Shown: positions 5,620 through 41,237 of the stretch, piece after piece
Layout of the letters: each line of letters begins with the position of its first letter
Position numbering within the stretch: the stretch's first letter is position 1
Source: Campylobacter hyointestinalis subsp. hyointestinalis
Lineage (GTDB): Bacteria > Campylobacterota > Campylobacteria > Campylobacterales > Campylobacteraceae
Direction: 5' to 3'
DNA: 64,000 bases
Assembly: GCF_013372145.1 (NCBI RefSeq)
Contig: NZ_CP053827.1
Location: forward strand, 1,426,001 to 1,490,000
Notes under the pieces: model-generated
The model's input: the letters and a program-made list of their open reading frames with translations, nothing else
What the model was told of the DNA's origin: nothing
Database searches by the model: none
Position numbers and translations under genes: made by a program

Positions 5620-5625
5620 AATGTT

Positions 5626-6624
5626 TTATCTTAAGCTTTTGAGTATCTCTTCAAAAGCATCGCAAAACGCTTTTAATCCATCATCAAGTAATATTTTGCA
5701 AGTATCATCATAATCTATATCCGCATTTTTTGCATCTGCAAAGAATTTATCCAAAACACTATCTTCTAAAATCTCTTTTGGAGTGTGATCTGATTTTATA
5801 AACGCTTTGATAGTATCAAGCGGAGCCGTATTTATCACATTTGGGTATAAAAGCTCTTTTATATAATAATCGCTTTCTAACTCGTTTCCTTTTACACCAG
5901 TACTAGCAAATAAAGCTCTGACATTGCTAAGTCCTGCGTTTTCTATCATTTTATAAGCTTTTGTAGCATTATAAATACCATATTTTGACGCCTCTAAATT
6001 TGCCTCTTTTAGCTTGCTATCAAGCAATCTATCAAAACGGCTTACAAATATGCTTATAACGCCTTTTGGTAGAGGTGCTCCGGGAAATCTTTTAGAGTAA
6101 GCTTTGCTTCCTTGTTTAAAGGCTTCTAGGCATTCATTTACAGCAGAGGTATTGAATATAAGAGTAGCATTTACGCTTATACCTTTTTTCATAAGTTCGC
6201 TCATAGCCTCAAATCCAGCCTTAGTAGCAGGGACTTTTATCATCACGTTCGGCATTTTTATAGTGTTAAATAGCCTTTTTCCCTCTTTATAAGTTCCTTC
6301 GCTATCATCATATAAATTCGGATCGACTTCTAAACTCACAAAACCATCATCACCGTCCGCATAATTTTTAAGCAGCTTATTTGCAGCGTTTTTAATATCT
6401 GATGTAGCTAAAATTTCATAAAGCTCTTTTGGGCTTTTTCTTTTATAATCATTCTTCATCTCTTCATAAGCGTTTGAAGAGCAAATGGCTGATTTAAAAA
6501 TAGCAGGATTGCTTGTAGCTCCATTTATAGTAGAGTTTTGTATCAAATTTAAAAACTCGCCGTTTATAAAATCTCTTTCTAAAAAATCACACCACAGTGA
6601 AAATTTAATATCATCCATATACAT
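5626..6624 (-). CDS. tal: Transaldolase
   Basis: A 332-residue transaldolase of the non-oxidative pentose phosphate pathway, which transfers dihydroxyacetone units between sugar phosphates. The substrate loop NSTINGATSNPAIF is near the N-terminus, and the Schiff-base Lys is in MIKVPATKAG. ISIFVSRFDRLLD and ALFASTGVK are further family segments. The ATG has AGGGG 5 nt upstream. It lies between serB and pilT in a tightly packed run. Confidence 0.94.
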   Translation of the reverse strand: MYMDDIKFSLWCDFLERDFINGEFLNLIQNSTINGATSNPAIFKSAICSSNAYEEMKNDYKRKSPKELYEILATSDIKNAANKLLKNYADGDDGFVSLEVDPNLYDDSEGTYKEGKRLFNTIKMPNVMIKVPATKAGFEAMSELMKKGISVNATLIFNTSAVNECLEAFKQGSKAYSKRFPGAPLPKGVISIFVSRFDRLLDSKLKEANLEASKYGIYNATKAYKMIENAGLSNVRALFASTGVKGNELESDYYIKELLYPNVINTAPLDTIKAFIKSDHTPKEILEDSVLDKFFADAKNADIDYDDTCKILLDDGLKAFCDAFEEILKSLR

Positions 6625-6632
6625 AAAAACCC

Positions 6633-7256
6633 CTATAAAATTTGTTTAATTTCCCTTAGATCTTTTACATCTACTATGTGAGTTGCTGCTTTTTTAAGTA
6701 TTTCGTTTGCGCAAAATGCTATACCAGTGCTTGCTTCTTTAAACATAGAAACGTCATTTGCCCCGTCTCCTACGCAAGCCACTTCTTCGTCTTTTAAATT
6801 TAAAAATTGCTTTAAACGTGCTAACATTTTACCTTTTGAGTCACTAAACATCATCTCTCCGCCAACGGCTCCTGTAAGAATCCCGTTTTTATGATGAAGT
6901 TCGTTTGCGAAGTTTATATCAAATCCAAGTTTAGCTTGTGCCGCGTCAGTTGCGATATGAAAACCGCCGCTAAATACAACCGTTTTTATACTTTTGGATT
7001 TTAAATAAGCTATGATCTCTTTTGCGCCATTTATAAATGGTAAATTTGAAGCTATATGTGTAGCATCTTCAAGTTTTAAACCTTCTATAAATTTTACTCT
7101 TTTCACTAAACTTTCATAAAAATCAAGCTCTCCAGCCATAGCTCTTTTTGTGATATCACAAACTTCTTTATCTTTTCCAACTGCTTTTGAAAGGATGGTG
7201 ATAGTCTCACCATCCATCAAAGTAGAATCAAAATCAAATACGCAAAGTTTTATCAT
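6633..7256 (-). CDS. serB: Phosphoserine phosphatase SerB
   Basis: A 207-residue HAD-superfamily phosphatase for the last step of serine synthesis. HAD motif I is FDFDSTLMDGE (nucleophile Asp8, acid Asp10), motif II is VVFSGGFHIATD, motif III Lys is in SDSKGKML, and motif IV is CVGDGANDVSMF. It lacks the N-terminal ACT domain of E. coli SerB, which is usual for short epsilonproteobacterial forms. It follows cheW with an 8-nt gap. Confidence 0.94.
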   Translation of the reverse strand: MIKLCVFDFDSTLMDGETITILSKAVGKDKEVCDITKRAMAGELDFYESLVKRVKFIEGLKLEDATHIASNLPFINGAKEIIAYLKSKSIKTVVFSGGFHIATDAAQAKLGFDINFANELHHKNGILTGAVGGEMMFSDSKGKMLARLKQFLNLKDEEVACVGDGANDVSMFKEASTGIAFCANEILKKAATHIVDVKDLREIKQIL

Positions 7257-7264
7257 CTAAAGCC

Positions 7265-7762
7265 TTAAAAATCACGTTTTAAAAGCGCTTCGACTTTTAA
7301 TATAGTAAGGATATTATTGTCCCTTTTACCTATACCTTGGATCATTCCTTTATCTCTTGCTAAAGTCTCAGGCGGCTGATCTATGCGGTTTTTATTTATC
7401 CTGATAGCCTCTGTAAGCCTATCTATAACAAAGCCTGCGATATTATCATCATCTTTCATAACTATGTAGCGTGTATTTGCAGTCATCTTTGTCGGATTTA
7501 GATTAAATTTGATTCTCAAATCTATAAGAGGTATTACGCTACCTCTTAGATTGAACACACCTAAAACATAGTCTGGAACACTAGGCACTCTAGTGTATTC
7601 TATAGGTTTGATTATCTCTTTTATGTACAAAATAGGAATCGCAAATTCTTCCTCGCCAACTATAAAGCCAACAAGTTGTTCAACTTCTTCTTTATCTCTA
7701 GCAGTAGGCTCTTTTATTTGTTGCTTCTGTTTTTGTAAAACTTGTTCTAATTTATCGCTCAT
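7265..7762 (-). CDS. cheW: Chemotaxis coupling protein CheW
   Basis: A 165-residue CheW that links chemoreceptors to the CheA kinase at the inner membrane. A charged 25-residue N-terminal extension is followed by a CheW fold (FIVGEEEFAIPILYIKEI, VLGVFNLRGSVIPLIDLR, AGFVIDRLTEAIRI). The order cheV-cheA-cheW with 3-nt and 10-nt gaps is the Campylobacter chemotaxis operon. Confidence 0.96.
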   Translation of the reverse strand: MSDKLEQVLQKQKQQIKEPTARDKEEVEQLVGFIVGEEEFAIPILYIKEIIKPIEYTRVPSVPDYVLGVFNLRGSVIPLIDLRIKFNLNPTKMTANTRYIVMKDDDNIAGFVIDRLTEAIRINKNRIDQPPETLARDKGMIQGIGKRDNNILTILKVEALLKRDF

Positions 7763-7772
7763 TTTACTTTCC

Positions 7773-10097
7773 TTACATTAGCTTGATGTTTTTTCTAACA
7801 ACATTTTCAAGGTATTCTGGAGAGTAAGGTTTTGTTATATACTCAGTCATACCAACTTCTACACCTCTTAAGCGATCGCTCTTACTGGTTCTACTAGTAA
7901 CTGCTATGAGAGGTAAATTCCTATATTTAGAGTATTTTCTGATCTCTCCAGCTAGTGTATATCCGTCCATTCTTGGCATTTCTATATCTATTAAGATAGC
8001 ATCAAGCGCATGCTCGCCTGATTTTACTAAATTTAACGCTTCAACGCCGTTTGTCGCCTCTATAACCGTTATGCCTAGTGGTTCTAATGATTTTTGCATT
8101 ATAGTTCTATCCATTTTCGAGTCATCAACTATAAGAACTTTATAATCACTAGGTTTTTCTTTCGTCACAGCTTTAACAGTGGATTCTATGCTGGCTCTTA
8201 TATCTATCTTGATCTCTTTTGCCATATCCATTATCATACCGACATCTACTATAAGCGTTACTTTACCATCTCCTCTTATCGTACCACCGGCTATTCCTCT
8301 AATGTTTTGCAAATAATTTCCAAGCGATTTGATAACTATCTCTTCTTGACCTATCAAGTGATCAACGATGATACCTAGCTTACTTTCAGCTACATTTATA
8401 ACTACTACGTAAGTTTGATCTCCACTTTCAAATACCTGCTTTACGCCAAACAGATCGCTAAGCCTAACAAGACTAAGCACCTCATCTCTAAGGCGAAGAA
8501 CGTTTTTACCTTCTATAGTGTAGATGTCTTCTACAGGTACTCTGACTGTCTCTTTGACGCTTGCTAAAGGAATAGCGTAAAACTCTTCTTGCGAACCTAC
8601 TAGAAGCGATTGTATGATGGCTAGAGTTAGAGGTATTTTTAGTTTGATTATAGTACCACGTCCTGGCTCGCTATCTATATCTATAATACCATTTAGCTTG
8701 TCGATATTTGTTTTAACAACGTCCATTCCGACGCCACGTCCGCTTACGTTTGTAACTTTTTTAGCCATAGAAAATCCAGGTTTAAATACAAGAGCATAAG
8801 CCTCTTTATCACTCATAGCATCTGCTTCTCTCTCAGTGATGATACCACGCTCTACAGCTTTAGCTTTTACAGCTATAGGGTCTATTCCCTTACCATCATC
8901 GACTATTTCTATGACTATGTGATTTCCCTCATTATAAGCTTTTAGCTGGATGGTGCCTTTTTCTGGTTTGCCAACTTTAATCCTATCTTTTGGCTCTTCG
9001 ACGCCGTGGTCGCAAGAATTTCTAATGATATGAACTAATGGATCGCCTATCTCTTCAACGATGGACTTGTCAAGCTCAGTCTCTTCACCACTGATCTCTA
9101 GATCTATCTGCTTGCCTAGCTCACGGCTAAGGTCTCTTACCATTCTTGGGAATTTGTTAAACACTTTAGCTATCGGAAGCATCCTTGTTTTCATAACAGC
9201 AAGCTGTATATCTGTGGTAACTAGACTTAAGCTTGAAACAACTTGATTTAACTCTTCGAGGAATTTTTCACCCTCATATCTCTCTTCTACATCATCATAT
9301 ATCTTAAGAAGTCTATTTTTACCTAAAACAAGCTCACCGATCAAGTTCATAAGATTATCGAGTCTTTTTACCTCAACACGTATGGTTTGCTCCATCGCCG
9401 CGCCCCCGCTTTGAGCTACTTGATTAGCAGCCGGTTTTTCTTTTGGGGACGGTGCTGGTTCAGGTTTTTTGATATCAGGCTCTGGTTTTGTCTCTTGTTT
9501 TGGAGCTTCGTTTTTCTTATTTTCTTTTCTCGCTTTATCTTCGGCTTTTCTAACTTTTAAAAGTCTTTCTATCTCTGCTTCTACTTCTGCTTCGCTAAGA
9601 TTATTCACGTTTATATCTTCATCGTTAGATTCTGGCGCTTCTTGCGATACTTCCTCACTTACTTGCTCTTGTTCGCTTTGTTTTGCTTGTTCAGTAGGCA
9701 AATCTTCACCTTCACTTATCGCAGTAAGTCTTGTGCAAATATCGCTGATATCGATACCAGCACTCGCATCGCTGCCATTGTCTCTGATGCTTTTTAATAG
9801 AGCTTTCATCATATCTACAGATTCAAGTACAACATCCATGATATCAGGAGTTATCTTTAAGTCTCCATGGCGTGCTTTATTTAAAACGTCTTCCATATGA
9901 TGAGTAAGTTTTGTGAGTATATCAAAATTTAAAAAAGATGAACTCCCTTTAACAGTATGCGCAACACGGAATATACGATTTAAAAGCTCCAAATCTTCCG
10001 GATTTGCTTCAAGTTCTACTAGATCGTGATCAATCTGTTCAATAAGTTCAAACGCTTCAACTAAAAAGTCTTCGAGTATTTCTTGCATATCGTCCAT
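7773..10097 (-). CDS. cheA: Chemotaxis histidine kinase CheA with C-terminal receiver (CheAY)
   Basis: A 774-residue hybrid kinase. Domains: HPt about 1-105 with phospho-acceptor His47 (RVAHTVKGSSSF); an acidic/Pro-rich linker; dimerisation domain about 240-300; HATPase_c (N-box IIRNSCDHGVEEP, G-boxes VDDGKGID and VSGRGVGMDVVKTN); a CheW-like domain (GSQEEFYAIPLASVKE); and a receiver from about 650 (VLIVDDSKMD, LIDIEMPRMDGY, TSRTSKSD, ITKPYSPE). The receiver fusion is characteristic of Campylobacter/Helicobacter and is proposed to act as a phosphate sink. No CheY or CheB/CheR gene is in this window. Confidence 0.97.
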   Translation of the reverse strand: MDDMQEILEDFLVEAFELIEQIDHDLVELEANPEDLELLNRIFRVAHTVKGSSSFLNFDILTKLTHHMEDVLNKARHGDLKITPDIMDVVLESVDMMKALLKSIRDNGSDASAGIDISDICTRLTAISEGEDLPTEQAKQSEQEQVSEEVSQEAPESNDEDINVNNLSEAEVEAEIERLLKVRKAEDKARKENKKNEAPKQETKPEPDIKKPEPAPSPKEKPAANQVAQSGGAAMEQTIRVEVKRLDNLMNLIGELVLGKNRLLKIYDDVEERYEGEKFLEELNQVVSSLSLVTTDIQLAVMKTRMLPIAKVFNKFPRMVRDLSRELGKQIDLEISGEETELDKSIVEEIGDPLVHIIRNSCDHGVEEPKDRIKVGKPEKGTIQLKAYNEGNHIVIEIVDDGKGIDPIAVKAKAVERGIITEREADAMSDKEAYALVFKPGFSMAKKVTNVSGRGVGMDVVKTNIDKLNGIIDIDSEPGRGTIIKLKIPLTLAIIQSLLVGSQEEFYAIPLASVKETVRVPVEDIYTIEGKNVLRLRDEVLSLVRLSDLFGVKQVFESGDQTYVVVINVAESKLGIIVDHLIGQEEIVIKSLGNYLQNIRGIAGGTIRGDGKVTLIVDVGMIMDMAKEIKIDIRASIESTVKAVTKEKPSDYKVLIVDDSKMDRTIMQKSLEPLGITVIEATNGVEALNLVKSGEHALDAILIDIEMPRMDGYTLAGEIRKYSKYRNLPLIAVTSRTSKSDRLRGVEVGMTEYITKPYSPEYLENVVRKNIKLM

Positions 10098-10100
10098 AAA

Positions 10101-11063
10101 TCACCTCTTATCTAAATATTTTTTATGAGCATCTATCACTTTTATGACCTCTTTGTAAAGCTGAGTAGCGTTAAATTTAGTCAAGTATCCATCAGCTCCA
10201 GCCTCTTTTCCGTGCATTTCACTAAATTCATTGCTAAGAGACGAGTTGAAAATAATAGGAATATTTGCAAATCTCTTGTCTTCTTTCAAGCTAGCTGCAA
10301 AGTGAAAACCGTCCATCTGAGGCATCTCGATATCACTTATGATAACTCTTAAGTTTTGCTCTAGATCTTCTTTATAAAGAGCGTAAAGATCATTTATCTT
10401 TTCTAGCCCCTCTGCTCCGTCTTTTGCTTCAACAACCCTAAGTCCCATTTTCGTAAGAGCATCACCGACCAAACGTCTTGCAGTAAGACTATCATCTAAC
10501 ACCAAAGCCATACCGCTAAGTTGAGTCATCTCATCTACTTCCATCTCGATCTTTGGCTGATAAATTCCAAGTTCTTCAACTATGCTTTCTAAATCCAAGA
10601 TCAAAAGAACTTCATCATTTTCTATCCTAGTTACGCCGGTTATCTTTGATTTATCAAGAGTACCATTTCCGACGCCGCCGCTAAAATTTGCCGGTTCGAT
10701 ATCTTTCCAGTTTATACGACGAATTCTTTTTGCTTCATGGACGATAAATCCTATAAATATATCGCTAAACTCAGCGATGATAACACGAGGTTTTAATATA
10801 CTATCTTTTGGCTCGATTATATTCATCCATTTTGCTAAATTTATAACAGGGATAACCACACCGCGAAGATCAAAAATACCTTCTATATAGTCTGGGACTC
10901 CCGGAAGTTCGGTAAGATTTGGCATTTTGATGATTTCTTTAACTTTGGCAACATTTACTCCGTAAATTCCTTCATAAACTCTATCTTCGCCTTGTTTAAA
11001 TATACGAAAATCAACAAGCTCCATCTCATTCGAACCCGTTTTAAGAATATTATCATCAAACAT
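10101..11063 (-). CDS. cheV: Chemotaxis protein CheV (CheW-receiver fusion)
   Basis: A 320-residue coupling protein with a CheW-like domain (about 10-165: VAKVKEIIKMPNLTELPG, IEGIFDLRGVVIPVINL) and a C-terminal receiver (about 180-315: LVLDDSLTARR, ISDIEMPQMDGF, FNSSLSNEF, LTKFNATQ). CheV adapts receptor-kinase coupling through phosphorylation. It is first of the three chemotaxis genes and overlaps the upstream metallophosphoesterase by 8 nt. Confidence 0.96.
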   Translation of the reverse strand: MFDDNILKTGSNEMELVDFRIFKQGEDRVYEGIYGVNVAKVKEIIKMPNLTELPGVPDYIEGIFDLRGVVIPVINLAKWMNIIEPKDSILKPRVIIAEFSDIFIGFIVHEAKRIRRINWKDIEPANFSGGVGNGTLDKSKITGVTRIENDEVLLILDLESIVEELGIYQPKIEMEVDEMTQLSGMALVLDDSLTARRLVGDALTKMGLRVVEAKDGAEGLEKINDLYALYKEDLEQNLRVIISDIEMPQMDGFHFAASLKEDKRFANIPIIFNSSLSNEFSEMHGKEAGADGYLTKFNATQLYKEVIKVIDAHKKYLDKR

Positions 11064-11778
11064 TTGGGCTCCTTAAGATTTGAAATTTCATTTCATCTGT
11101 GTATTCTACTATAAAATACCTTTGTTCACACGCAAAACAAGGTAAATTTATATAAATTTTATCATCAAACCGTAAATTTACACCTTGATGATAGTGTCCT
11201 TCGATGATTTTTGGAGTTTGGTAGTTATAAATCTTAGCTCCAATAACAAACTCAAAATCAACTATTTTATAATCAAGTCGCTTTATAGCTTGAGCTGCTA
11301 AAATCAGCTTTGATATCTTAAATTTAAAAAATCTATCTATGAGATCCATTATCCATAAAAATGATTTATTTCTCAAAAATCTAAGAGCCAAGCTCTCAAA
11401 CGGCTTTAAAAAAATATCGCCGTGTGCTAAACTGACTTTTTGTCCAAATTTATCTGTAAAAATTTGAGGCTGAGCATAAATGTTAAACACTTCTATGTTT
11501 GGGAAAATTTCAGCAAGATTATAATCATGATTTCCCTCGAAATAATAAATTTTCATCTCTTTACTAAGTTCGTTTAAAAGCTCAATTTGGTCTTTAAAAA
11601 ACTCTTTAGAATAAGTCGTATTTGAGAGATAATCAAACATATCTCCCATTATAAAAAGCTGTGGCGGCGTAGAGATGGCTCCATTTTTTAAAGATTTTAG
11701 AAAATTTAAAAAACCTTTTTTGTTTGCATTATCATGAGCATCGGCTATAAACAAAGCGCCGTCTAGAATTTCTCTCAT
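11056..11778 (-). CDS. Calcineurin-like metallophosphoesterase, LpxH-like
   Basis: A 240-residue phosphoesterase with the metal-binding set: ADAHDN (D-x-H), MGDMFDYL (GDxxD), EGNHDYN (GNHD), SLAHGDI, and GHYHQG at the C-terminal side. The arrangement resembles UDP-2,3-diacylglucosamine hydrolase (LpxH), and lpxB lies three genes upstream, so a lipid A role is plausible. Sequence inspection cannot separate LpxH from other phosphoesterases. It overlaps argC by 4 nt and cheV by 8 nt. Confidence 0.8.
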   Translation of the reverse strand: MREILDGALFIADAHDNANKKGFLNFLKSLKNGAISTPPQLFIMGDMFDYLSNTTYSKEFFKDQIELLNELSKEMKIYYFEGNHDYNLAEIFPNIEVFNIYAQPQIFTDKFGQKVSLAHGDIFLKPFESLALRFLRNKSFLWIMDLIDRFFKFKISKLILAAQAIKRLDYKIVDFEFVIGAKIYNYQTPKIIEGHYHQGVNLRFDDKIYINLPCFACEQRYFIVEYTDEMKFQILRSPNV

Positions 11779-12803
11779 ATAGAGTCGCCGACTAAAGGAA
11801 GCCCTAAGCTTTCATCAAAACCAAACATCAAATTTGCATTTGCTAAGGCCTGAGATGAAGCGCCACGAAGAAGATTATCTATGCCACTATTTATCCAAAT
11901 CTTACCATCATTATTTATCGCAAAAATATCACAAAAATGTGTTCCGGCGACATCTTTGATACTAACAGGCTCACGCCTAATGCGTATAAACTTCTCATTT
12001 TTATAAAAATCTCTTAAAATCTGAAGTGGATCAATACCCTTAAACTCATCTTTAAGAACCAAAAAACTACTCACTAACATTCCACGAGTAAGCGGTACTA
12101 AATGCGGCACGAACATTACATCAATATCATCTTTTAAACAGTCTTTGCGATTTTTATTTAAGTGCTCTTTTATCTCGCCCTCATGACGATGCGTAAGAGG
12201 ACTATAAGCATTTACGTTTTCATTTACGCTTACAAAATGGCTAGTTTGTTTTAAGCTTTTTCCAGCACCGCTAAGACCGCTTTTTGCATCTATCATTACA
12301 CCAAATTTAGGCTCTAACATATCTGCAAACGGTAGTAAAGCTAAAAGTGAGCAAGTAGGATAACATCCCGGATTTGCTATCAAATTTGCGGTTTTTATCT
12401 TATTTCTATTTATCTCTACTAGTCCATAAACAGCATCTTTTAATCCATCTTTATCTAAATGAGGACAATAATTTCTCTCATAATTTTCTAAACTCACTCG
12501 GTAATCAGCAGAAAGATCGACTATCTTTACGCCTGAGCCTCTCAACTCTTTAGCCACTTTCATACCTTCAGTATGAGGAAGCGCTAAAAATAGAAGTTTG
12601 CAACGCTTTTTTGCTTCATTTGTATCTGCGACTTCAACTTTTAAATTTAGTACATTTTTAAGACTTGGAAATATATCTTCAAGCTCATTTTGACTAGTTG
12701 CCCCTGCATAGCAAAGCTCAAAATTTGGATGATTTATCAAAAGTTTTACTAATTCAAGTCCGGTATATCCACTGATTCCTATTATGCCGACGCTTATTTT
12801 CAT
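11775..12803 (-). CDS. argC: N-acetyl-gamma-glutamyl-phosphate reductase ArgC
   Basis: A 342-residue NADPH-dependent reductase for the third step of arginine synthesis. N-terminal Rossmann motif VGIIGISGYTGLELVKLL, catalytic Cys in ANPGCYPTCSLLAL, a substrate His in SPLTHRHEGEI, and the HLVPLTRGM segment. Length is normal. It is embedded in the operon 8 nt after greA and overlaps the metallophosphoesterase by 4 nt. Confidence 0.96.
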   Translation of the reverse strand: MKISVGIIGISGYTGLELVKLLINHPNFELCYAGATSQNELEDIFPSLKNVLNLKVEVADTNEAKKRCKLLFLALPHTEGMKVAKELRGSGVKIVDLSADYRVSLENYERNYCPHLDKDGLKDAVYGLVEINRNKIKTANLIANPGCYPTCSLLALLPFADMLEPKFGVMIDAKSGLSGAGKSLKQTSHFVSVNENVNAYSPLTHRHEGEIKEHLNKNRKDCLKDDIDVMFVPHLVPLTRGMLVSSFLVLKDEFKGIDPLQILRDFYKNEKFIRIRREPVSIKDVAGTHFCDIFAINNDGKIWINSGIDNLLRGASSQALANANLMFGFDESLGLPLVGDSI

Positions 12804-12811
12804 CTTTAACC

Positions 12812-13297
12812 TTAACTAAATTTGATCGGTTTATAGAATACTGAAACTATCTCTATCTCGCTTCTTCCATTTGGCAAAGTTAGTACCACGTCATCGCCTT
12901 CACTTTTGCCTATGAGTTGTTTTGCAAGAGGAGTATTTATGCTGATAAGACCCAACTCTAGGTTACTTTCGCTGATACCCACTATAGTATAAGTCGTTTC
13001 AAGCTCGGTATCAACATCCATTATAGTAACTGTTGAGCCAAATTTAACCTTGTCGTGTTCATACTCGCTAGGATCTACGACTTTTGCCCTACTTACTATA
13101 TCGCTAAGCTCGGCTATACGGTTTTCTATAAAAGCTTGTTTTTCTCTAGCTGCGTGATACTCTGAGTTTTCTTTTAGATCGCCATGACCTCTTGCAATGT
13201 CGATTTCTTCAACGATAGCAGGTCTTTGGACGAGCTTTAGATCTCTAAGCTCCGCAGTGATTTTCTCATAACCATAAATTGTCATCGGTTCGGTCAT
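12812..13297 (-). CDS. greA: Transcription elongation factor GreA
   Basis: A 161-residue Gre factor that rescues backtracked RNA polymerase. It has an N-terminal coiled coil ([20 protein letters not shown], with the acidic tip D..E) and a C-terminal FKBP-like domain ([20 protein letters not shown]). It lies between lpxB (40-nt gap) and argC (8-nt gap). Confidence 0.96.
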
Positions 13298-13337
13298 TTT
13301 TCACCTCTATTTACATTTTAAACTGACCCTATTTTAT

Positions 13338-14369
13338 CTAAATTTGGCTTAAAAGTATATCGGCGACTTTTTTAGCGCTTCCATGTTTTAAGTAGTCTCT
13401 AAGCTCTTTGCAAGCTCGTAAAAACTTACTTTTATCACAATTTTTATACTCATCAAGCAAAGCTTTTTTACTAACTTGCTCTTGGATCAACTCAACATTT
13501 AGCGCCTCTTTACCCATAAAATCAAATATAATATTTGCAAGTCCTACGTGTTTTAGTTTTACAAGCTTTCTAGCAAGCCATATATCGATCGCTTTTGCTT
13601 TATAGCAAAGCACAAAAGGAGTTCCTATAAGAGCCGCTTCAAGAGTAGCAGTTCCAGAACACACAAAGGCAAATTCACTTTGTAAAAGGGCTTTATGAGT
13701 ATCAAAAACCACTTGAAACTCACTCACGTCGCCATAAATTTCATCTATATCATTCTTTAAATTTGGCGGCACTACTAAAAGTTTTTTACCATTTAAGCTT
13801 AATGCGACTTCTTTATATACAGGCATTAGTTTAGTTATCTCTGATTTCCTTGAACCCGGTAAAAACGCTACGATTTGGCTATTTAAAAGTTCTCTTTTTT
13901 GCACCTTTATCTCATCAAGCAAAGGATGACCTACGTAGTTTGAGCGCGAATAAAATGAAGCGTCAAAAGGTAAGATAGAAGCTAGATTGTCGCAGTATTT
14001 CTCCACTTTAGCTACGCGTCCACTTTTCCACGCCCAAACTTGTGGAAGTATGTAGTAAGTTATCTCACATTTTAAACCGGCTTCTTTTATAGCTTTTGCT
14101 AAAGGTAGGTTAAAAGCAGGACTATCTATAAGCAAAACCTTATCGCAGTTTTCAGCAAGCAAAACCATCTGTTTTAAAGCTTTTTTTGCCTTAAAAATTA
14201 GCGGTAAGATCTCCACAAATCCCATAGCTGAAAACTCTTTACTATCGTAAAGCACCTCACCGAATTTCTTATCAAAAATCCCACAGATTTCGCTATTTTT
14301 TAAATGCTTTAAAACCTCTGCTAAATGTAAATTCGCCGAAGCTTCAAGGCAAGAAACTAAAATTTTCAT
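13338..14369 (-). CDS. lpxB: Lipid-A-disaccharide synthase LpxB
   Basis: A GT19 glycosyltransferase that joins UDP-2,3-diacylglucosamine and lipid X at the inner membrane. Markers: CLEASANLHLAEVL at the start, VLLIDSPAFNLPLAKAI, YILPQVWAWKSGRV, VGHPLLDE, LPGSRKSEI and CSGTATLEAALIGTPFV. An ATG nine codons further upstream overlaps the TATAAT promoter box. I therefore chose MKILVSCLEAS at 14369 (AGGA 8 nt upstream), giving 343 residues. It is the first gene of a run reaching pilT or pth. Confidence 0.93.
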   Translation of the reverse strand: MKILVSCLEASANLHLAEVLKHLKNSEICGIFDKKFGEVLYDSKEFSAMGFVEILPLIFKAKKALKQMVLLAENCDKVLLIDSPAFNLPLAKAIKEAGLKCEITYYILPQVWAWKSGRVAKVEKYCDNLASILPFDASFYSRSNYVGHPLLDEIKVQKRELLNSQIVAFLPGSRKSEITKLMPVYKEVALSLNGKKLLVVPPNLKNDIDEIYGDVSEFQVVFDTHKALLQSEFAFVCSGTATLEAALIGTPFVLCYKAKAIDIWLARKLVKLKHVGLANIIFDFMGKEALNVELIQEQVSKKALLDEYKNCDKSKFLRACKELRDYLKHGSAKKVADILLSQI

Positions 14370-34024: not shown

Positions 34025-36616
34025 TTATTCCAAATTGCTTTCTTCTATTATTTCACTTTCTAAAATCTCATCATCAGACTCTTCTTTAGGACATCTTGCT
34101 ATGCTGACGACTTCATCACCTTCTACATTTACGACTATTACGCCGCTTGTATTACGTCCAGCTTTTCTTATACTTTGCATATCGACTCTTATCATCTTGC
34201 CGCTTGATGTTAGCGCCATAAGATCCATCTCTTCATCGACCATCACGACACCTACTAACTCTTTTGTTTTTGGAGTTAGCTTCATACAAATGACACCTTT
34301 ACCACCACGACTTTGCAAACGGTATTCATCAGCAGTCGTACGTTTACCGATACCTTTTTGGCTTACGCTTAATATCTCTTGAGAGTCATTTTCTATGACT
34401 ACGGCTCCTACGACTTCATCGCCCGCTTCTTTAAATCTTATGCCGGTGACACCTCGACTAACTCTTCCTATCTGTCTTACTTTATGAAGAGCGAATTTGA
34501 TACACATACCTTTTTTAGTCACGATAAACAGCATCTTACCAGAGTTGTCATCATCTTCTTCTATCTCATCATTTAGCACTTCAAGACTGTTTTCATCATC
34601 TTCTACGCCTTCAGCCCTTGTTTCGTAGAATTCGCCCGGTTCGCTATTTGCGATAAGAACTGTAACAAGCTCATCATCTTCATCTAAATTTATAGCTTTT
34701 ACGCCGATTGAACGGATATTTTTGAACTCGCTTAAATTTGTACGTTTTACTATACCATTTTTAGTAAAGAATGCTAAAGATTTGCTCTCATCAAAATCTG
34801 TAGTAGGAATGATAGCCTTTATCTTTTCATCTGCTTGAAGCTGGATCAAATTTACCACCGCTTTGCCTTTTGCAGTGCGGCTACCTTCTGGTATTTTATA
34901 GACTTTGAGCCAGTAAAGCTGTCCGCGATCTGTTACAAACATAAGCGTATCATGGCTCATACAAGTAAAGAAACTCTCGATAAAATCATCTTCATAAGTA
35001 GTCACAGCTACTTTGCCTTTTCCACCTCGTTTTTGCTTTTCATAGCTCTTGCTAGGAACGCGTTTTATGTATCCGCGGTGAGTTATGGTAACTACCATAT
35101 TTTCATTTGGTATAAGATCTTCTATATCGATATCATCATAATCATCGACTATCTCAGTGATGCGAGGGCATTTAAATTTAGATTTGATCTCTAAAAGCTC
35201 TTCTCTTATGATATTTTCTATCAAAGTTTCACTTTTTAGTATCGCATCTAGTTTTTCTATAAGTTCTAAAATCTCTTTTAGCTCTGCTTCTAATTTTTCT
35301 CTTTCAAGTCCAGTGAGTTTGCTGAGCCTCATATCGAGTATAGCGTTACTTTGTAACTCTGAAAGTCCAAATTTAGCCATCAAACCATCTCTTGCAGAGT
35401 TTGTATCTGCACTAGTTTTTATCAGATTGATAACCGCATCTATGTTATCAAGCGCTATTTTTAGCCCTTCTAGTATATGAGCTCTTGCACGCGCCTTTTG
35501 AAGTTCAAATATAGTACGTCTAATTATGACGGTTTTTCTATGATTTAAAAATAATCTTAAAAGCTCCATAAGAGAAAATACTTTTGGCTCTTTGTTGTTT
35601 ATAGCAAGCATTATGACGCCAAAAGTTACTTCCATTTGAGTGGATTTAAAAAGATTATTTAGCACAATCTCGCTCATCGCGTCACGTTTTAGCTCGATGA
35701 CTAGACGAATTCCATCCCTATCGCTCTCATCTCTGATCTCACTAATCCCATCGATCACTTTATCTTTTACAAGATCTGCTATGTCTGAGTGAAGTTTGGC
35801 TTTATTTACTTGATATGGGAGCTCATCGACTACGATCACGTCTTTGTTTGGTTTTTTTTCTATGTGAGTTTTGGCTCTTAGTTTTATACGCCCACGACCT
35901 GTTTTATAAGCCTCTAAAATACCTTTTTTACCAAATATTATTCCGCCTGTTGGAAAATCAGGCCCTTTTATATGAGTCATGATCTGATCTAAAGAGGCAT
36001 CTTTATCATCTAAAAGAACAAGCAAACCATCTATTAATTCATCAAGGCTATGTGGAGGGATATTTGTAGCCATACCTACTGCGATACCACTACTACCATT
36101 TAGTAGCAAATTCGGTACGCGTGCAGGTAAAACATCAGGCTCACTTAAGCTATCATCATAGTTTGGGATAAAATCAACAGTATCTTTATCTAGATCTCTT
36201 AAAAGCTCTTCAGCCAAAACTGTCATTCTAGCTTCTGTATAACGCATAGCAGCCGCGCCATCCCCGTCGACTGAGCCAAAGTTTCCCTGTCCATCAACTG
36301 CAGGAACTCTCATAGAAAAGCTCTGAGCCATTCTAACTAGCGCGTCATATACGGCAGTATCGCCGTGTGGGTGATACTTACCGATAACATCTCCAACGAT
36401 ACGAGCAGACTTTTTGTACGGGCTACGACTTCCCACGCCAAGATCGTTCATAGCATAAAGTATGCGACGATGCACAGGCTTTAAACCATCCCTTGCATCT
36501 GGCAAAGCACGACCTATGATAACACTCATCGAATAGTCTAAGTAGCTAGTTTTTATTGAATCTTCGACATCTATAACATCGATATCTTGATTTGTATTAA
36601 AAATATTTTCTTCCAT
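34025..36616 (-). CDS. gyrA: DNA gyrase subunit A
   Basis: An 863-residue type II topoisomerase A subunit. The catalytic Tyr is in [10 protein letters not shown]. The quinolone region reads [14 protein letters not shown] with Thr87 and Asp91 (equivalent to Thr86/Asp90 of C. jejuni), the unmutated state. C-terminal beta-pinwheel blades contain the GyrA box region [15 protein letters not shown] box and AAGGA lie upstream. In C. jejuni it directly follows the comF-like gene; here 4.5 kb of accessory genes intervene. Confidence 0.98.
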
Positions 36617-36709: not shown

Positions 36710-37492
36710 CTACATTTTTAGTAGTATTTGTTCATCTTTTCTTAATGCACTTATTGTGTCTTTAAAATATTTATCTGCCTTTATCAAAGTTATGGTTGAA
36801 CCTCCGATAGACGAGGTATGGAAGTTATATGTAGATTTGAGTATTGATACTTGTTTTTCTACGGCTAAAATACTTCTTTTTTTAATATCTCTCACAAAAT
36901 ATAATATGCTCTTACTAGATATTTTGCCGTTTTCATCCACTATTTTTCCGCTAAACTCCTTAAAATATCTATAGCTTACTTCTGCTTGCTCTTCGATGTA
37001 ATGAGTAAATGTATATCCGAGTTTTTGATTACCCAAGAGAACTATTTTGCCTTCCATTTTTTTAAGCACGTCATAGACTGAGTTTTTACCAAAACAACTT
37101 TTCGTATCGCTTAAAAAAGCATCTTTATTAGCTCCATTAATTGCAAAAGAAAAAATCGGATCATTTGTGCGAACAACACCATTTTGATGTCTGAAAAACT
37201 CAGTCAAAACGCCCATAGTGCTTCTTGAGTTTAGCTTATCATAAATTTTATTTTTACAAAAACTATATGTAAATGTAGGCATAATGAGCGTTCCATTTTT
37301 ACCTATAACTTCATAAAAACACTCCAATAAAACTCTCAAAAACTCATCTTTTGGTAAAAGTGGTTTGCCAAGAGTAAAAAGCTCGGTATGAACGCAAACA
37401 GCATCACCACTTTTTATACCGATTTGCTCTAAAGCATCTAAAAAATCGCTTTTTTTAACAAGCTTTCCATTTGCTTCTAAGATAGCTTTCAT
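36710..37492 (-). CDS. AAC(3)-type N-acyltransferase of the glycan-like cassette
   Basis: A 260-residue protein of the aminoglycoside 3-N-acetyltransferase superfamily: GIKSGDAVCVHTELFTLG, LIMPTFTYSF, RSTMGVLTEFFR and an active-site-like THYIEEQAEVSYRYFKEF. Chromosomal members often N-acylate amino sugars in surface glycans; drug resistance is not implied. Cj1296/Cj1297 of the C. jejuni flagellin-glycosylation locus belong to this family. It overlaps the carrier-protein gene by 4 nt and is the last gene of the cassette. Likely role: transferring an acyl group from CoA or the carrier to a sugar amine (inference). Confidence 0.85.
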   Translation of the reverse strand: MKAILEANGKLVKKSDFLDALEQIGIKSGDAVCVHTELFTLGKPLLPKDEFLRVLLECFYEVIGKNGTLIMPTFTYSFCKNKIYDKLNSRSTMGVLTEFFRHQNGVVRTNDPIFSFAINGANKDAFLSDTKSCFGKNSVYDVLKKMEGKIVLLGNQKLGYTFTHYIEEQAEVSYRYFKEFSGKIVDENGKISSKSILYFVRDIKKRSILAVEKQVSILKSTYNFHTSSIGGSTITLIKADKYFKDTISALRKDEQILLKM

Positions 37493-37713
37493 CTCATCGC
37501 TTTATCTATCATATCTTTTAAACTAGCAAAACTCTCAAAACTCTCATTTGTTATGAACTCTGCACGCAATGGTTTTTTATACGCTTTTTCTATCGCCGCA
37601 ACAAGAGCCATTATATCCATACTATCGATAATTCCGCTGCTTAAAAGCTCGCCCATACTCTCATTTACATCATCTCTACCTATTTGGTTAAAAAGCTCTT
37701 TGATCTTATTCAT
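37489..37713 (-). CDS. Acyl/aminoacyl carrier protein
   Basis: A 74-residue four-helix carrier protein with the phosphopantetheine Ser in SGIIDSMDIMALV (Ser31). The frame is open further upstream from a TTG, but AAAGGAG 5 nt before the ATG at 37713 fixes the start. It is not the housekeeping AcpP, which has the DSLD motif and fatty-acid gene neighbours. Its place between the GNAT and AAC(3) genes and near a DltA-like ligase suggests it carries an activated amino acid. Confidence 0.88.
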   Translation of the reverse strand: MNKIKELFNQIGRDDVNESMGELLSSGIIDSMDIMALVAAIEKAYKKPLRAEFITNESFESFASLKDMIDKAMR

Positions 37714-37754
37714 TTTTACTCCTTTATAATATTTAATTTTTGACAAATATGTTT

Positions 37755-38495
37755 TTAAATTTTATTTTTCCTCTTATAAAATAAAATTTGTATATCGTTA
37801 AACTCAAACCCGAATTTTTTATAAAATTCTATAGCTTTTATATTCGTATCTCTTACAAATAGTTTAAAATGCCAAGCGTTTAATCCCAAAAAACAGCTCA
37901 TCAGCTTACGCCCGATTCCACTTTTTCTAAATTCATTGCTAACTGCCATAAAATCCAAATGAGCCGAGTTTAAATTTAAAAAATATACCAAAGCGCCTAC
38001 TATTTTCTTATCTTGTTTTATGATGAGTACTTGACCTTGTTGTATTCTATTTTTAAGTTCAGTTTTGCTTATAAAAAGATAGTTTTTATCAAAATAATTT
38101 ATAAAAAAATCATAAATCTCACCCATATCATCAAGCAAAGCTTTTTTAACCTCATCATAACTTTGAAAACCAAAACCGCTATTTTTTAAACTCATACCGA
38201 TATATCTATCAAAAATACTAAATTTATTAATACTCAAAAATCTATTTTCAAGCTCACAAATAGGCGTTTTACGTATAATTTTTATATAGCTTCCTTGCAT
38301 ATCAAATTTTGCTATATCATTTATAAAATATGTGATAAAATCGTTTTGGGTTAGAAAAAAGTTATCTGCACTCTGCTTTAAATAAATTTGATTTTGGTCT
38401 AATTTATTTTTGATGCTATCTATGCTAAACGTGCTATTGCTAAACTTAAATCCGCCGTTATAAAAATAGCTTAAAAACTCATTATACAAGTCCAT
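37755..38495 (-). CDS. GNAT-family N-acetyltransferase with unknown N-terminal half
   Basis: A 246-residue protein from the ATG at 38495 (AAAGG 6 nt upstream; an ATG nine codons earlier is less likely). The C-terminal 110 residues are a GNAT domain: VGALVYFLNLNSAHLDFMAV, then the acetyl-CoA loop RKSGIGRKL and KAIEFYKKFGFE. The N-terminal about 130 residues have no domain I recognise. It overlaps the ligase by 14 nt. Cj1298 of C. jejuni is a cassette-type acetyltransferase of similar context. A plausible job is N-acetylation of the carrier-bound amino acid or of a sugar; this is inference. Confidence 0.8.
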   Translation of the reverse strand: MDLYNEFLSYFYNGGFKFSNSTFSIDSIKNKLDQNQIYLKQSADNFFLTQNDFITYFINDIAKFDMQGSYIKIIRKTPICELENRFLSINKFSIFDRYIGMSLKNSGFGFQSYDEVKKALLDDMGEIYDFFINYFDKNYLFISKTELKNRIQQGQVLIIKQDKKIVGALVYFLNLNSAHLDFMAVSNEFRKSGIGRKLMSCFLGLNAWHFKLFVRDTNIKAIEFYKKFGFEFNDIQILFYKRKNKI

Positions 38496-39966
38496 AAAGC
38501 ACCTTTCGATCAATTTTGCCATTTTGATTTAGCACAAATTTATCTACTAAAATAAACTTTTTTGGCACCATATAATTAGGTAGTTTCTCTAAAAGATAAG
38601 TTTTTAAATTTATCTCATTTTTCGCCTCGTAAAAGCATATTATTTCGCTATTTTTAAATATACAAACTGAGTTTAAAACTTTTTTATGAGAATTAGTTGC
38701 AGTTTCGATCTCGCCAAGCTCTATCCTATGCCCCATAAGTTTTATTTGATTATCGATCCTTCCATAGCAAATCAACTCTCCAAGATCGTTAAAAGCCACT
38801 ATATCGCCTGTTTTATAAAGGATATCTTGATAATTATTATGCAGTGGATTTTGGATAAAAGCTTCTTTTGTTTTTTGGCTATTTGCAAAGTATCCTAGGC
38901 TAAGGCTCGTCCCTCTAACATAAAGTTCGCCCCTAACAAACGGCTCTTTTATCAAATTTAGTTCATCATCAAAAACCAAAAGTTCGGTATTTTGACAAGC
39001 CTTTCCTATAGGAAGTGGCTCATCATCACTAAAACTCCTATCACAAATGTAAAAAGCACAAACATCAGTTATCTCAGTAGGCCCATAAAGATTTGCAAAA
39101 AGAGCGTGTGGAAGAGCTTTTCGCCAGATATTTAGCTGTTTATTAGGCATTATCTCTCCGCAAAATAGTACTTTTTTGAGACTTAAAAGCCTAAAATTAG
39201 CAAGTGCATTTACGTTTGCAAAATACGTAAGCACTGAAGGCACCCAAAAAATCAAACTAACGCCGTGTTTTTCTAAATAATCTAACACTTTATTTGGAAA
39301 AGCAAAAATAGAAGTCGGCAAGATATGCAAAGTAGCGCCAACTTTAACGCAAGAAAAAATATCCAAAATAGAGTTATCAAAATAAAACGGCGCTTGATTT
39401 GCCAAAATTTCGCTTGAGCTTAGCTCAAAAGTCTCACAAACCCAAAAAGTATAATCGATCACGCTTTTATGGCTTATGCTTACACCTTTTGGCACGCCAG
39501 TGCTTCCGCTAGTAAAAAATACATAGAGTAAATTTGTATCTATATGAGCATTTCTAGCCTCTTTTAGCGTACTTTTATCTACGTCAAATTTACCAAAATC
39601 CTCACAAAATATCTTTTTAGCATTCACAAAATCAAATTTAAAATCCTTTTGCGTAATAATAACCTTTGGTTTTAGAATTTTAACAACTTGTTCTATACGC
39701 TCTTGTGGCGTTTGAGTATCTAGCAAAGTATAGAAATTCCCACTTTTTGCCACGCCAAAAAATGAAACTAAAGTCAAAATGCACTTTGGCAAGATGATTA
39801 AAACAGCATCTTTATTTAAATTTAGCCTTAAAATTTCACTAGCTAGTCTATCCGTAATCTCATCAAATTCAGCATAAGTCATACTCTCATCGCCAAAGAC
39901 AAATGCTTTTTTAAATGGATTTTTTGCAACCGAAATATCTAAAAAGTCACAAATATTTCTTATCAT
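38482..39966 (-). CDS. DltA-like amino acid:carrier protein ligase
   Basis: A 494-residue stand-alone adenylation domain. Core motifs: A3 FFTSGSTGVPKG (151-162), A4 FYFDNSILDIF with Asp197 that binds the alpha-amino group, A5 NLYGPTE (292-298), A7 YKTGD (384-388), A10 NGKIDRK with catalytic Lys484. VLFCGE places a Cys at residue 269, the position of the Cys that selects D-alanine in Bacillus DltA. It lacks a condensation or carrier domain, so it should load the separate carrier protein encoded two genes downstream. Start overlaps the DUF4910 gene by 4 nt. Cj1307 of C. jejuni is a comparable amino-acid-activating enzyme. Confidence 0.88.
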   Translation of the reverse strand: MIRNICDFLDISVAKNPFKKAFVFGDESMTYAEFDEITDRLASEILRLNLNKDAVLIILPKCILTLVSFFGVAKSGNFYTLLDTQTPQERIEQVVKILKPKVIITQKDFKFDFVNAKKIFCEDFGKFDVDKSTLKEARNAHIDTNLLYVFFTSGSTGVPKGVSISHKSVIDYTFWVCETFELSSSEILANQAPFYFDNSILDIFSCVKVGATLHILPTSIFAFPNKVLDYLEKHGVSLIFWVPSVLTYFANVNALANFRLLSLKKVLFCGEIMPNKQLNIWRKALPHALFANLYGPTEITDVCAFYICDRSFSDDEPLPIGKACQNTELLVFDDELNLIKEPFVRGELYVRGTSLSLGYFANSQKTKEAFIQNPLHNNYQDILYKTGDIVAFNDLGELICYGRIDNQIKLMGHRIELGEIETATNSHKKVLNSVCIFKNSEIICFYEAKNEINLKTYLLEKLPNYMVPKKFILVDKFVLNQNGKIDRKVLYGLV

Positions 39967-41237
39967 CTGGCTTCCTTAATGAGCTCAAATTTAAGTAAAT
40001 TTTCTATGACATCTTTTAGATTTTTTGCTTCTACGCTAAGCTTATCGGCTATGTCTATGACGCTTCTTTTGCCGTTGCAATACGCTAAAAAATCACGAAT
40101 TATCATAGTACTTTTGTGGATACCTTTGGTATTTATGGTGCTTATTATTCCTCTTGAGCCAAGATTTGGTTCGCAAGTCGTGTTTAGGCGGTAGATTTTG
40201 TTTATTTCTAAATTTAAGATCATATTTTTAGCATAGTTTAGTCCATCTTCAAGTCCCTTTTTAGTAACTAAACTCATATCATCCAAGCTTGTATGATACT
40301 CTTTATATTCGCCAAACCTACTCTTGCAAAGTGTCACGATACCTAAATTTAAATTAGGCGTATTAAATTGTCTTTCATCACTTCCACGGTATAAAAATGA
40401 GTAAATTTTTGGGTTTTTACTAAGAAATTTAATCGTATGAAGTGCGGCTTTATCGCTTAAAGTGTCTTCATCAGGACTTAAAATCACACTATAAGCTCTC
40501 TCATCACCTATACAACTAAGCACAAATCCAGCCTTTACATTTTGTTTTAAGGCTTCATAATTTTTACTGATATAACAGATCGATCCGATAGTCTCAGGAA
40601 CTATGATAAAACGATAATTAAAACGTCTATTTTCTAGCGTTCGCACCCATTTTATGAGCTCACTCATCACAACAGGTCCGCTTAGCTCGTTGTTTGCCAT
40701 TTGCGGATGACAAAGATATGTGCTAATCAAAATCTCATCGCTAGTCTGTTTTGTTGCAGAAATGAAATATTCGCCATAATTTAGCTCGCCATCACTTTTA
40801 AACTCAGTATCTATAAAAACCTTATAAATGCCATCTTTTAAAGTTTTTCTTTGATTATGGCTGATACAAAATCCCCACCTTTTTTCATAATAACTAGTAA
40901 CATATGGAATTGCACCTGGCAAGTTTGGAAGCGAATACAAGTGAGCTTGCAGCTCATCAAGACTAATGGCTTGATTTATAGCGGTTGAGTAATTTAAAAG
41001 ATGTAGGTTGTGTTTTTTAAATTCGCAGATTTTTTCACCGCTTGGGGTGATGATATAAGCGTCCCTTACTATCCATTCAGCAGGAACTACCCAGTCAAAA
41101 CATTTGCTGCCACTTTTTACGCTAAAACGCTCAACCCCCCCCCCAACAGCTGAATTTAAGATATCTAGACTACGCCTAAAACCTTCTCCTGTTATACTTC
41201 TTGGAATGGTAAATAGCTTTTTTGCAAGTTCATACAT
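39963..41237 (-). CDS. DUF4910 aminopeptidase-like protein, phase-variable
   Basis: A 424-residue protein resembling Cj1295 of C. jejuni. An aminopeptidase-like DUF4910 domain (1-360) carries zinc-site segments LCHPQMANNELSGP, VPETIGSICYI, DERQFNTPNLNLG and EYHTSLDDM; a winged-helix domain follows (about 370-424: IIRDFLAYCNGKRSVIDIAD). A G10 tract at 41135-41144 encodes V31-GGG-V35; the present length keeps the gene in frame (ON). Cj1295 has a similar poly-G tract and affects flagellin glycan modification. The gene starts 9 nt after comF and overlaps the ligase by 4 nt, so switching may also affect downstream genes by polarity. Whether it is a peptidase is unproven. Confidence 0.9.
   Translation of the reverse strand: MYELAKKLFTIPRSITGEGFRRSLDILNSAVGGGVERFSVKSGSKCFDWVVPAEWIVRDAYIITPSGEKICEFKKHNLHLLNYSTAINQAISLDELQAHLYSLPNLPGAIPYVTSYYEKRWGFCISHNQRKTLKDGIYKVFIDTEFKSDGELNYGEYFISATKQTSDEILISTYLCHPQMANNELSGPVVMSELIKWVRTLENRRFNYRFIIVPETIGSICYISKNYEALKQNVKAGFVLSCIGDERAYSVILSPDEDTLSDKAALHTIKFLSKNPKIYSFLYRGSDERQFNTPNLNLGIVTLCKSRFGEYKEYHTSLDDMSLVTKKGLEDGLNYAKNMILNLEINKIYRLNTTCEPNLGSRGIISTINTKGIHKSTMIIRDFLAYCNGKRSVIDIADKLSVEAKNLKDVIENLLKFELIKEAR
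41135..41144 (-). repeat. Poly-G(10) contingency tract
   Basis: Ten consecutive C on the plus strand, hence G10 in the coding strand of the DUF4910 gene, codons 32-35. It is the only G/C run of this size I saw in the window. Gain or loss of one G would shift the frame and truncate the protein; such tracts slip at high rates in Campylobacter. Confidence 0.95.

What the first reader, a model, noticed from the sequence alone, without database searches (positions are those of the whole stretch)
36710..41237. Five-gene carrier-protein cassette inserted between comF/ctsW and gyrA
Seen: DUF4910 protein, DltA-like ligase, GNAT, carrier protein and AAC(3)-type acyltransferase, with 4-14-nt overlaps at most junctions, lie between two genes adjacent in C. 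jejuni (Cj1028c-gyrA). Known: similar families occur in the C. jejuni flagellin glycosylation locus (Cj1295-Cj1299, Cj1307-Cj1308). Inference: a compact pathway in which the ligase loads an amino acid on the carrier, the GNAT may acetylate it, and the AAC(3)-like enzyme transfers it to an amino sugar of flagellin, LOS or capsule. I know of no description of this minimal set at this locus.
Basis: partly seen in the sequence, partly recalled or inferred. Interest (0 to 1): 0.85.

Follow-up and report, generated by a model that had tools for sequence, protein, structure and literature searches.

The report
Phase-switched flagellar-sugar acylation cassette
Five Campylobacter genes between comF and gyrA look like a relocated, switchable toolkit that activates an amino acid on a carrier protein, caps it, and puts it on pseudaminic acid, the sugar that decorates flagella; close relatives show a formyl-capping sixth gene that this genome has lost.

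Summary
In detail: five co-directional genes (DUF4910, adenylating ligase, GNAT, carrier, AAC(3)-like) lie at 36710-41237 between comF and gyrA, a site that is empty in other species. Ligase, DUF4910 and AAC(3)-like genes lie within 10 kb of each other in 40 of 153 family genomes, and in many the cassette sits inside the pseudaminic-acid operon (pseB-pseC-[cassette]-pseF-pseG-pseH).

(1) A G10 tract near codon 32 of the DUF4910 gene, the only poly-G of 8 or more in the window, is in frame here and out of frame in several relatives: phase variation, as in C. jejuni Cj1295. (2) The set is a reduced form: 59 bp between GNAT and carrier are the two ends of a deleted formyltransferase gene, intact in the closest relative. 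Formyltransferase, adenylation enzyme and carrier is the logic of linear gramicidin synthase A. (3) The comF-gyrA site was occupied at least twice.

Cj1295 is already known to be needed for exchanging an N-acyl group on pseudaminic acid, so this is a new variant of a known kind. The amino acid, the sugar position and flagellin as target are inferred.

The parts
39963..41237 (-). DUF4910/DUF2172/HTH_47 protein, 424 aa, homologue of Cj1295 family and of PDB 3k9t; first gene of the cassette
41135..41144 (-). G10 homopolymer near codon 32 of the DUF4910 gene, in frame here (predicted ON); phase-variation switch
   Evidence: expected number of G8 words in shuffled window 0.05; orthologues carry G8 (ON), G9 (OFF), G10 (OFF), G10 (ON), G8 (OFF)
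38482..39966 (-). stand-alone amino-acid adenylation enzyme (ligase), 494 aa
   Evidence: Asp197 (binds the amino group in A domains) and core motifs invariant
37755..38522 (-). tandem-GNAT-fold N-acyltransferase; likely start 38495 (246 aa) from orthologues
   Evidence: (AlphaFold2 pLDDT 90)
37710..37768 (-). scar of a deleted formyltransferase gene: first 26 bp (85% identical) joined to last 35 bp (91%) of the gene that is intact in G005; overlaps the GNAT 3' end and the carrier start
   Evidence: same junction in G014, a different junction in G002
37489..37713 (-). carrier protein, 74 aa (ORF open from 37746), motif GIIDSMD with the serine for phosphopantetheine
36710..37492 (-). AAC(3)-fold acyltransferase (PF02522), 260 aa
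41247..41816 (-). flank: comF/ctsW-like phosphoribosyltransferase gene; cassette starts 9 nt after it
34025..36616 (-). flank: gyrA

Best explanation
The cassette is a relocated copy of the acylation module of the Campylobacter pseudaminic-acid (Pse) flagellar glycosylation pathway. Proposed steps: the ligase adenylates an alpha-amino acid and loads it on the phosphopantetheine arm of the carrier; the tandem GNAT acetylates the amino group (before or after transfer); the AAC(3)-fold enzyme moves the acyl-aminoacyl group from the carrier to an amine of Pse or a nucleotide-linked precursor; the DUF4910 protein acts at the acceptor step (freeing the amine by removing N-acetyl, or assisting the acyl exchange). 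Slippage of G10 in the DUF4910 gene switches the modification on and off. Shown here by sequence: gene set, order, tract, in-frame/out-of-frame states between species, conserved linkage to pse genes, formyltransferase scar. Inferred: every enzymatic step, the amino acid, the sugar position and flagellin as the final target. The five-gene form is a reduced version of a six-gene cassette (with an N-formyltransferase) and is expected to make the N-acetyl form only.
For: Co-occurrence: of 153 family genomes 62 have the AAC(3)-like gene, 59 DUF4910, 57 the ligase; 57 of 59 DUF4910 genomes also have AAC(3)-like (Fisher p 2e-33); 40 genomes have all three within 10 kb. Window-type GNAT is next to the ligase in 21 of 29 hits. 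Context: G110 has pseB-pseC-[D4910-ligase-GNAT-carrier-AAC3]-KASIII-pseF-pseG-pseH, the window's exact order; G111, G086, C. troglodytis and others are alike; G011's cassette is beside legionaminic-acid genes; a Lachnospiraceae locus has the module split around pseF and pseI. Own genome has pseB (73% identity), pseC, pseF, pseI and a Maf transferase. Cj1295, same family with a G tract, is required for di-O-methylglyceroyl replacing the C5 N-acetyl of Pse on C. jejuni flagellin (m/z 391 against 317; PMC3068675). N-acetylglutamine-substituted Pse is known from C. jejuni 81-176 with no genes assigned (PMC3068675), a chemical precedent. Ligase: best PDB match by sequence is LgrA, formyltransferase-adenylation-carrier; ligase-formyltransferase fusion in G015.
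Against: In this genome the cassette is about 80-120 kb from the pse genes, so linkage is only by homology. No enzyme was assayed. DUF4910 does not keep the standard M28 catalytic residues (PMC4000134), and the cassette type has Asn where 3k9t has the zinc ligand Asp195 (33 of 36 readable sequences), which weakens a simple deacetylase role. A third DUF4910 gene lies beside a neuB-like gene in a different, tract-rich surface-polysaccharide-like locus of the same genome, so the family is not restricted to flagellin. Carrier scores below the Pfam cut-off. ON/OFF states were compared between species, not within one strain.
Confidence: 0.66

Rival explanations
1. Same chemistry, different target: the acyl-aminoacyl group goes on an amino sugar of LOS, capsule or another surface glycan, not on flagellar Pse.
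For: The cassette is unlinked from pse genes here; DUF4910 homologues occur in surface polysaccharide loci of many phyla (PMC4000134); a DUF4910 gene is beside a neuB-like gene in a second locus of this genome; G006 carries the cassette outside any pse or leg locus.
Against: In another Campylobacter genus nearly all fetched cassettes are inside the pse operon, the closest characterised homologue acts on flagellar Pse, and Lachnospiraceae loci combine the ligase and carrier with pse genes and flagellin.
Confidence: 0.2
2. DltA/DltC-like aminoacylation of a cell-envelope polymer, or a small diffusible metabolite made by a mini-NRPS.
For: Ligase and carrier resemble DltA and DltC among known families.
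Against: Both fall far below the Dlt cut-offs (310 against 560; 19 against 68 bits), no DltB or DltD neighbour is present, no condensation or release domain is present, and the neighbours in relatives are sugar genes.
Confidence: 0.06
3. Alternative order of steps: the aminoacyl group is first transferred to the sugar and the GNAT then acetylates it, as mycothiol synthase MshD does with Cys-GlcN-Ins.
For: The AlphaFold2 model is a tandem GNAT whose PDB matches include MshD and sugar N-acetyltransferases.
Against: GNAT and formyltransferase share the gene slot between ligase and carrier, and the formyltransferase is fused to the ligase in G015, which fits capping on the carrier. Matches are of fold only (8-15% identity).
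Confidence: 0.3
4. Aminoglycoside resistance by the AAC(3)-like gene.
For: PF02522 family and fold.
Against: All curated AAC(3) models are missed by a wide margin (best 68 against 270 bits); the conserved neighbourhood is glycan biosynthesis.
Confidence: 0.01

Closest known systems
Cj1295-Cj1308 segment of the C. jejuni flagellin glycosylation locus (Cj1295 = DUF4910)
   Different: Here the module is compact, outside the pse operon, has a GNAT directly after the ligase, and lacks the glyceric-acid, methylation and KASIII-like genes; donor predicted to be an N-acylated amino acid.
Linear gramicidin synthase LgrA, formyltransferase-adenylation-carrier initiation module
   Same: Adenylation enzyme most similar in the PDB to LgrA; relatives of the cassette have formyltransferase + ligase + carrier genes, fused formyltransferase and ligase in G015.
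   Different: Stand-alone proteins, no condensation domain; the formyltransferase is deleted in the window and a GNAT does the capping.
CA_C2195 neighbourhood of Clostridium acetobutylicum (PDB 3k9t, PMC4000134)
   Same: DUF4910 with carrier protein, amino-sugar N-acetyltransferases, NeuB-type synthase and Maf-type protein; a role in modified-sugar biosynthesis was already proposed in 2014, including transacylation to an amino sugar.
   Different: No AMP-binding ligase, formyltransferase or tandem GNAT is listed there; an ATP-grasp ligase is; no phase variation.
PhasomeIt 'cj1295' phase-variable homology group (PMC6321876)
   Same: C. fetus (8 of 8 genomes), C. jejuni and C. coli carry G7-10 tracts in this group; formyltransferase-domain genes with tracts listed in C. 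fetus and C. coli.
   Different: That survey catalogues single genes; it does not describe the cassette, its site, or the formyltransferase loss.

Membership tests
Cj1295-type Pse acylation module | DUF4910 protein with 5' poly-G tract | tested here: met
Cj1295-type Pse acylation module | AAC(3)-like partner, carrier and ligase in one direction | tested here: met
Cj1295-type Pse acylation module | located inside the pse operon | tested here: not met
   window cassette is between comF and gyrA; pse genes about 80-120 kb away; met in related genomes
Cj1295-type Pse acylation module | acyl group found on flagellar Pse | not testable with these tools
   needs mass spectrometry
LgrA-type F-A-T module | amino-acid adenylation enzyme | tested here: met
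   passes TIGR01733 (325.2 against 317.4 bits); LgrA top PDB match
LgrA-type F-A-T module | formyltransferase present | tested here: not met
   only a 26 + 35 bp scar in the window; intact in G003, G005 with invariant N/H/D residues
LgrA-type F-A-T module | carrier with phosphopantetheine serine | tested here: inconclusive
   DSM motif and conservation, but Pfam PF00550 18.5 against 20.8 bits
Dlt D-alanylation system | DltA and DltC above curated cut-offs, with DltB and DltD | tested here: not met
   (310/560, 19/68 bits); no DltB/DltD among window ORFs by inspection
AAC(3) resistance enzymes | score above NCBIfam AAC(3) equivalog cut-off | tested here: not met
   67.9 against 270 bits; fold family PF02522 met
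M28 zinc peptidase | standard catalytic and metal residues | tested here: not met
   cassette DUF4910 has NNE where 3k9t has zinc ligand Asp195; 3k9t itself lacks the M28 catalytic Asp and Glu (PMC4000134)

The most novel reading that the evidence does not exclude
In the six-gene relatives a stand-alone LgrA-like module carries two competing N-capping enzymes, a constant acetyltransferase and a formyltransferase with its own poly-G switch, so cells toggle both whether the flagellar sugar carries an aminoacyl group (DUF4910 tract) and whether it is N-formylated or N-acetylated (formyltransferase tract). The window's lineage has fixed the acetyl state by deleting the formyltransferase. Support: formyltransferase tract at the same place (nt 484-510) in loci of three genera; tracts in 16 of 26 DUF4910 and 9 of 14 formyltransferase ORFs, but none in 29 ligase or 20 GNAT ORFs.
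Probability: 0.3. Interest if true: 0.75.

Novelty: new variant of a known kind. Interest (0 to 1): 0.52.

Why it matters
The genes that make most of the known pseudaminic-acid variants on Campylobacter flagella are unassigned. A compact, complete and phase-variable set in a species with few moving parts gives a testable route: which amino acid is loaded, which cap is added, and what DUF4910, a widespread protein of unknown chemistry, does. If right, it links antibiotic-style carrier-protein chemistry (as in linear gramicidin) to antigenic switching of flagella, and the acetyl-only and acetyl-plus-formyl species form a natural comparison.

Tried and rejected
Dlt system and aminoglycoside resistance: rejected by curated cut-offs. 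First AlphaFold2 run on GNAT with 8 sequences gave a poor model (pLDDT 53) and was not used; 22 sequences gave pLDDT 90. Naming the species failed: the one genome-contig scan leaves out very near records; size and relatives suggest the C. fetus/C. hyointestinalis group, but this is not shown. Amino-acid specificity was read off by eye by aligning the ligase to LgrA and, from memory, PheA (D197 N198 L201 F240 L267 C269 L293 D301 V302 K484); it matches no code I can name with confidence, so no amino acid is claimed. Literature searches for Cj1307/Cj1308/Cj1299 and for formyltransferase plus pseudaminic acid found no description of this pathway. Looked for integrases or transposases in the cassette: none seen among ORFs; GC 32.2% against 35.6% for the window is not diagnostic. 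A ligase relative (54%) with a carrier in an operon after rpoD in C. lanienae-like species was considered as the same system and set aside: different neighbours (KASIII, CDP-alcohol phosphatidyltransferase) and a separate clade.
Full report
WHAT IS THERE. The window is part of a 1.75-Mb single-contig Campylobacter genome (G000; window = C1:1426001-1490000). On the - strand, in transcription order, are comF-like (41816-41247), DUF4910/DUF2172/HTH_47 (41237-39963), an AMP-binding adenylation enzyme (39966-38482), a GNAT (38522 or more likely 38495 to 37755), a 74-aa carrier (37713-37489), an AAC(3)-fold protein (37492-36710) and gyrA. The ligase is a general amino-acid adenylation enzyme, not DltA by curated cut-off, and the AAC(3)-like protein is far below all resistance models.

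THE SWITCH. A run of ten G lies near codon 32 of the DUF4910 gene (41135-41144). It is the only run of 8 or more G or C in the 64 kb; shuffles give 0.05 expected matches. The reading frame is open through it. In orthologues at the same site the run is G8 (open, G014), G10 (open, G005), G9 (shifted, G002), G10 (shifted, G003) and G8 (shifted, G015, with a second G9 upstream of the start), with the rest of the gene intact in every case. That is the mark of translational phase variation. It matches the published tract in Cj1295 (PMC3068675) and the 'cj1295' homology group that is phase-variable in all eight C. fetus genomes examined (PMC6321876). The comparison is between species, and homopolymer lengths in assemblies can be wrong by one; I saw no within-strain series.

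A LOST SIXTH GENE. In G003 and G005 a formyltransferase gene (about 244 aa, residues N, H and D of the catalytic triad invariant in the alignment) lies between GNAT and carrier. In the window this interval is 41 nt. Aligned to the G005 gene, window 37710-37768 is its first 26 bp (85%) joined directly to its last 35 bp (91%), with the start codon changed to ATA. G014 has the same junction; G002 has a different one (36 bp + 112 bp). G005 is the nearest relative by comF (97%), so the deletion was either recurrent or has moved by recombination. The 'minimal set' is therefore a reduced six-gene cassette. No formyltransferase of this type is found elsewhere in the window's genome.

DISTRIBUTION. In 153 genomes of the family, AAC(3)-like, DUF4910 and ligase profiles hit 62, 59 and 57 genomes; 57 of the 59 with DUF4910 also have AAC(3)-like (Fisher p = 2e-33; related species are not independent, so this is descriptive), and 40 genomes in five genera have all three within 10 kb. 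The window-type GNAT lies directly after the ligase in 21 of 29 hits, the formyltransferase next to ligase or GNAT in 19 of 27. The exact five-gene order recurs in G014, G002, G131 and G110; the six-gene order D4910-ligase-GNAT-formyltransferase-carrier-AAC(3) in G003, G005, G051 and G111, and in G086 with one extra gene. Outside the family, formyltransferase or GNAT again follows the ligase in Lachnospiraceae, Bacteroidales and Anaerosphaera loci. In G015 ligase and formyltransferase are one 739-aa ORF.

THE PATHWAY IT BELONGS TO. In a second Campylobacter genus (g4 in the searches) the cassette lies in the pseudaminic-acid operon. G110 reads pseB-pseC-D4910-ligase-GNAT-carrier-AAC(3)-KASIII-pseF-pseG-pseH; C. 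troglodytis reads pseB-pseC-D4910-ligase-formyltransferase-carrier-AAC(3)-...-pseF-pseG-pseH. The G011 cassette is beside legionaminic-acid genes, and the G015 one is beside pseC at the comF site. In three relatives without the cassette, comF is followed directly by pseC. The window's own genome has pseB (73% identical to C. troglodytis), pseC, pseF, pseI and a Maf-type transferase. Gene names for neighbours rest on my own small profiles and reading, not on a curated scan.

THE SITE. comF and gyrA are adjacent with 40-104 bp between them in G132, G085, G104 and G110. The site holds the cassette in six genomes of this genus and in G131 of another genus, whose sister G132 has the empty site; G016 has only D4910 + AAC(3)-like there. 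A ligase tree puts the cassettes of the lepA-comF-gyrA neighbourhood from three genera in one clade (support 100/98), next to the pse-operon ones, while the G015 cassette at the same site groups with the legionaminic-locus cassette of G011 (100/100). So the neighbourhood has been occupied at least twice. No integrase was seen; exchange by transformation through the conserved flanks is a plausible but untested route.

MECHANISM, AND WHAT SUPPORTS EACH STEP. (1) Ligase + carrier: adenylation motifs and the Asp that binds the alpha-amino group (Asp197) are invariant in the family, so an alpha-amino acid is expected; its identity is not. (2) Cap: the GNAT model (AlphaFold2, pLDDT 90) is a tandem GNAT; fold matches include mycothiol synthase, sugar N-acetyltransferases and other tandem GNATs. 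Its place in the slot that also holds the formyltransferase, and the closeness of the ligase to LgrA, suggest capping of the aminoacyl group, on the carrier as in LgrA or after transfer as in mycothiol synthesis. (3) Transfer: the AAC(3) fold transfers acyl groups to sugar amines (established for the family). (4) DUF4910: in C. jejuni, Cj1295 is required for Pse carrying a di-O-methylglyceroyl group in place of the C5 N-acetyl (m/z 391 against 317), and its authors proposed that it removes that N-acetyl (PMC3068675). Das et al. showed that DUF4910 lacks the standard M28 catalytic residues and proposed transacylation to an amino sugar (PMC4000134). The cassette type departs further: Asn in place of the zinc ligand Asp195 in 33 of 36 readable sequences, while DUF4910 copies outside such cassettes keep Asp. 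I leave deacylation against assisted acyl exchange open; the near-perfect co-occurrence with AAC(3)-like, and the two-gene D4910 + AAC(3) form in G016, say the two act together.

NOVELTY. The kind is known: acyl variation of flagellar pseudaminic acid under a Cj1295-type switch. What I did not find described is the donor pathway as a unit, its LgrA-like logic, the exchangeable or double N-capping slot with a conserved tract in the formyltransferase (9 of 14 ORFs; none in ligase or GNAT), the comF-gyrA location, and the formyltransferase scar. A specialist would find this useful and somewhat surprising, mostly because N-acetylglutamine on Pse is known in C. jejuni 81-176 (PMC3068675) with no genes assigned. 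The library holds open-access papers only, so absence of a description is not proof.

Noticed in passing
L024 (G000:C1:1305000-1324900), 3124-9027: Second, more distant cassette in the same genome: AAC(3)-like broken or out of frame at a G8 tract and fused with DUF4910, ornithine-cyclodeaminase-like gene, carrier, ligase (39% to the window's) and a split PLP decarboxylase; G005 has AAC(3)-DUF4910 as one 709-aa ORF and an intact decarboxylase.
   Followed up: partly
L162 (G000:C1:24000-42000), 1600-14300: Tract-rich surface-glycan-like locus with six G8-G11 runs, a neuB-like gene and a third DUF4910 gene carrying a G9 tract; this copy keeps the zinc-ligand Asp (ND instead of NN).
   Followed up: partly
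L033-L037, e.g. L035 8124-13694: Another phase-variable operon after rpoD in five genomes of the genus: ligase (54%), carrier, YkgJ-like protein, CDP-alcohol phosphatidyltransferase, SDR, KASIII-like, carrier, GNAT, with runs of 7 to 10 G before the ligase and in or next to the phosphatidyltransferase and SDR genes. Function unknown.
   Followed up: partly
L032 (G005) about 8670-8690: The ligase of the nearest relative is split by a frameshift although both its tracts are in frame: pseudogene or assembly error.
   Followed up: no
L160 (G000:C1:1540000-1559900), 6864-10276, and L068 15035-18747: Radical SAM, nucleotidyltransferase-like and phosphonopyruvate/AEP-type decarboxylase genes shared next to pse genes in the window's genome and in C. 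troglodytis, hinting at a further Pse or glycan modification.
   Followed up: no
L074 11529-14722 (Lachnospiraceae MAG): Ligase and carrier in a locus with pseB, pseF, pseI, pseG and a flagellin gene: the module may act in Gram-positive flagellar glycosylation too.
   Followed up: partly
L247 (G016:C1:228000-240000), 6514-8361: At the comF-gyrA site only DUF4910 and an AAC(3)-like gene are present, a two-gene form without ligase, GNAT or carrier.
   Followed up: partly
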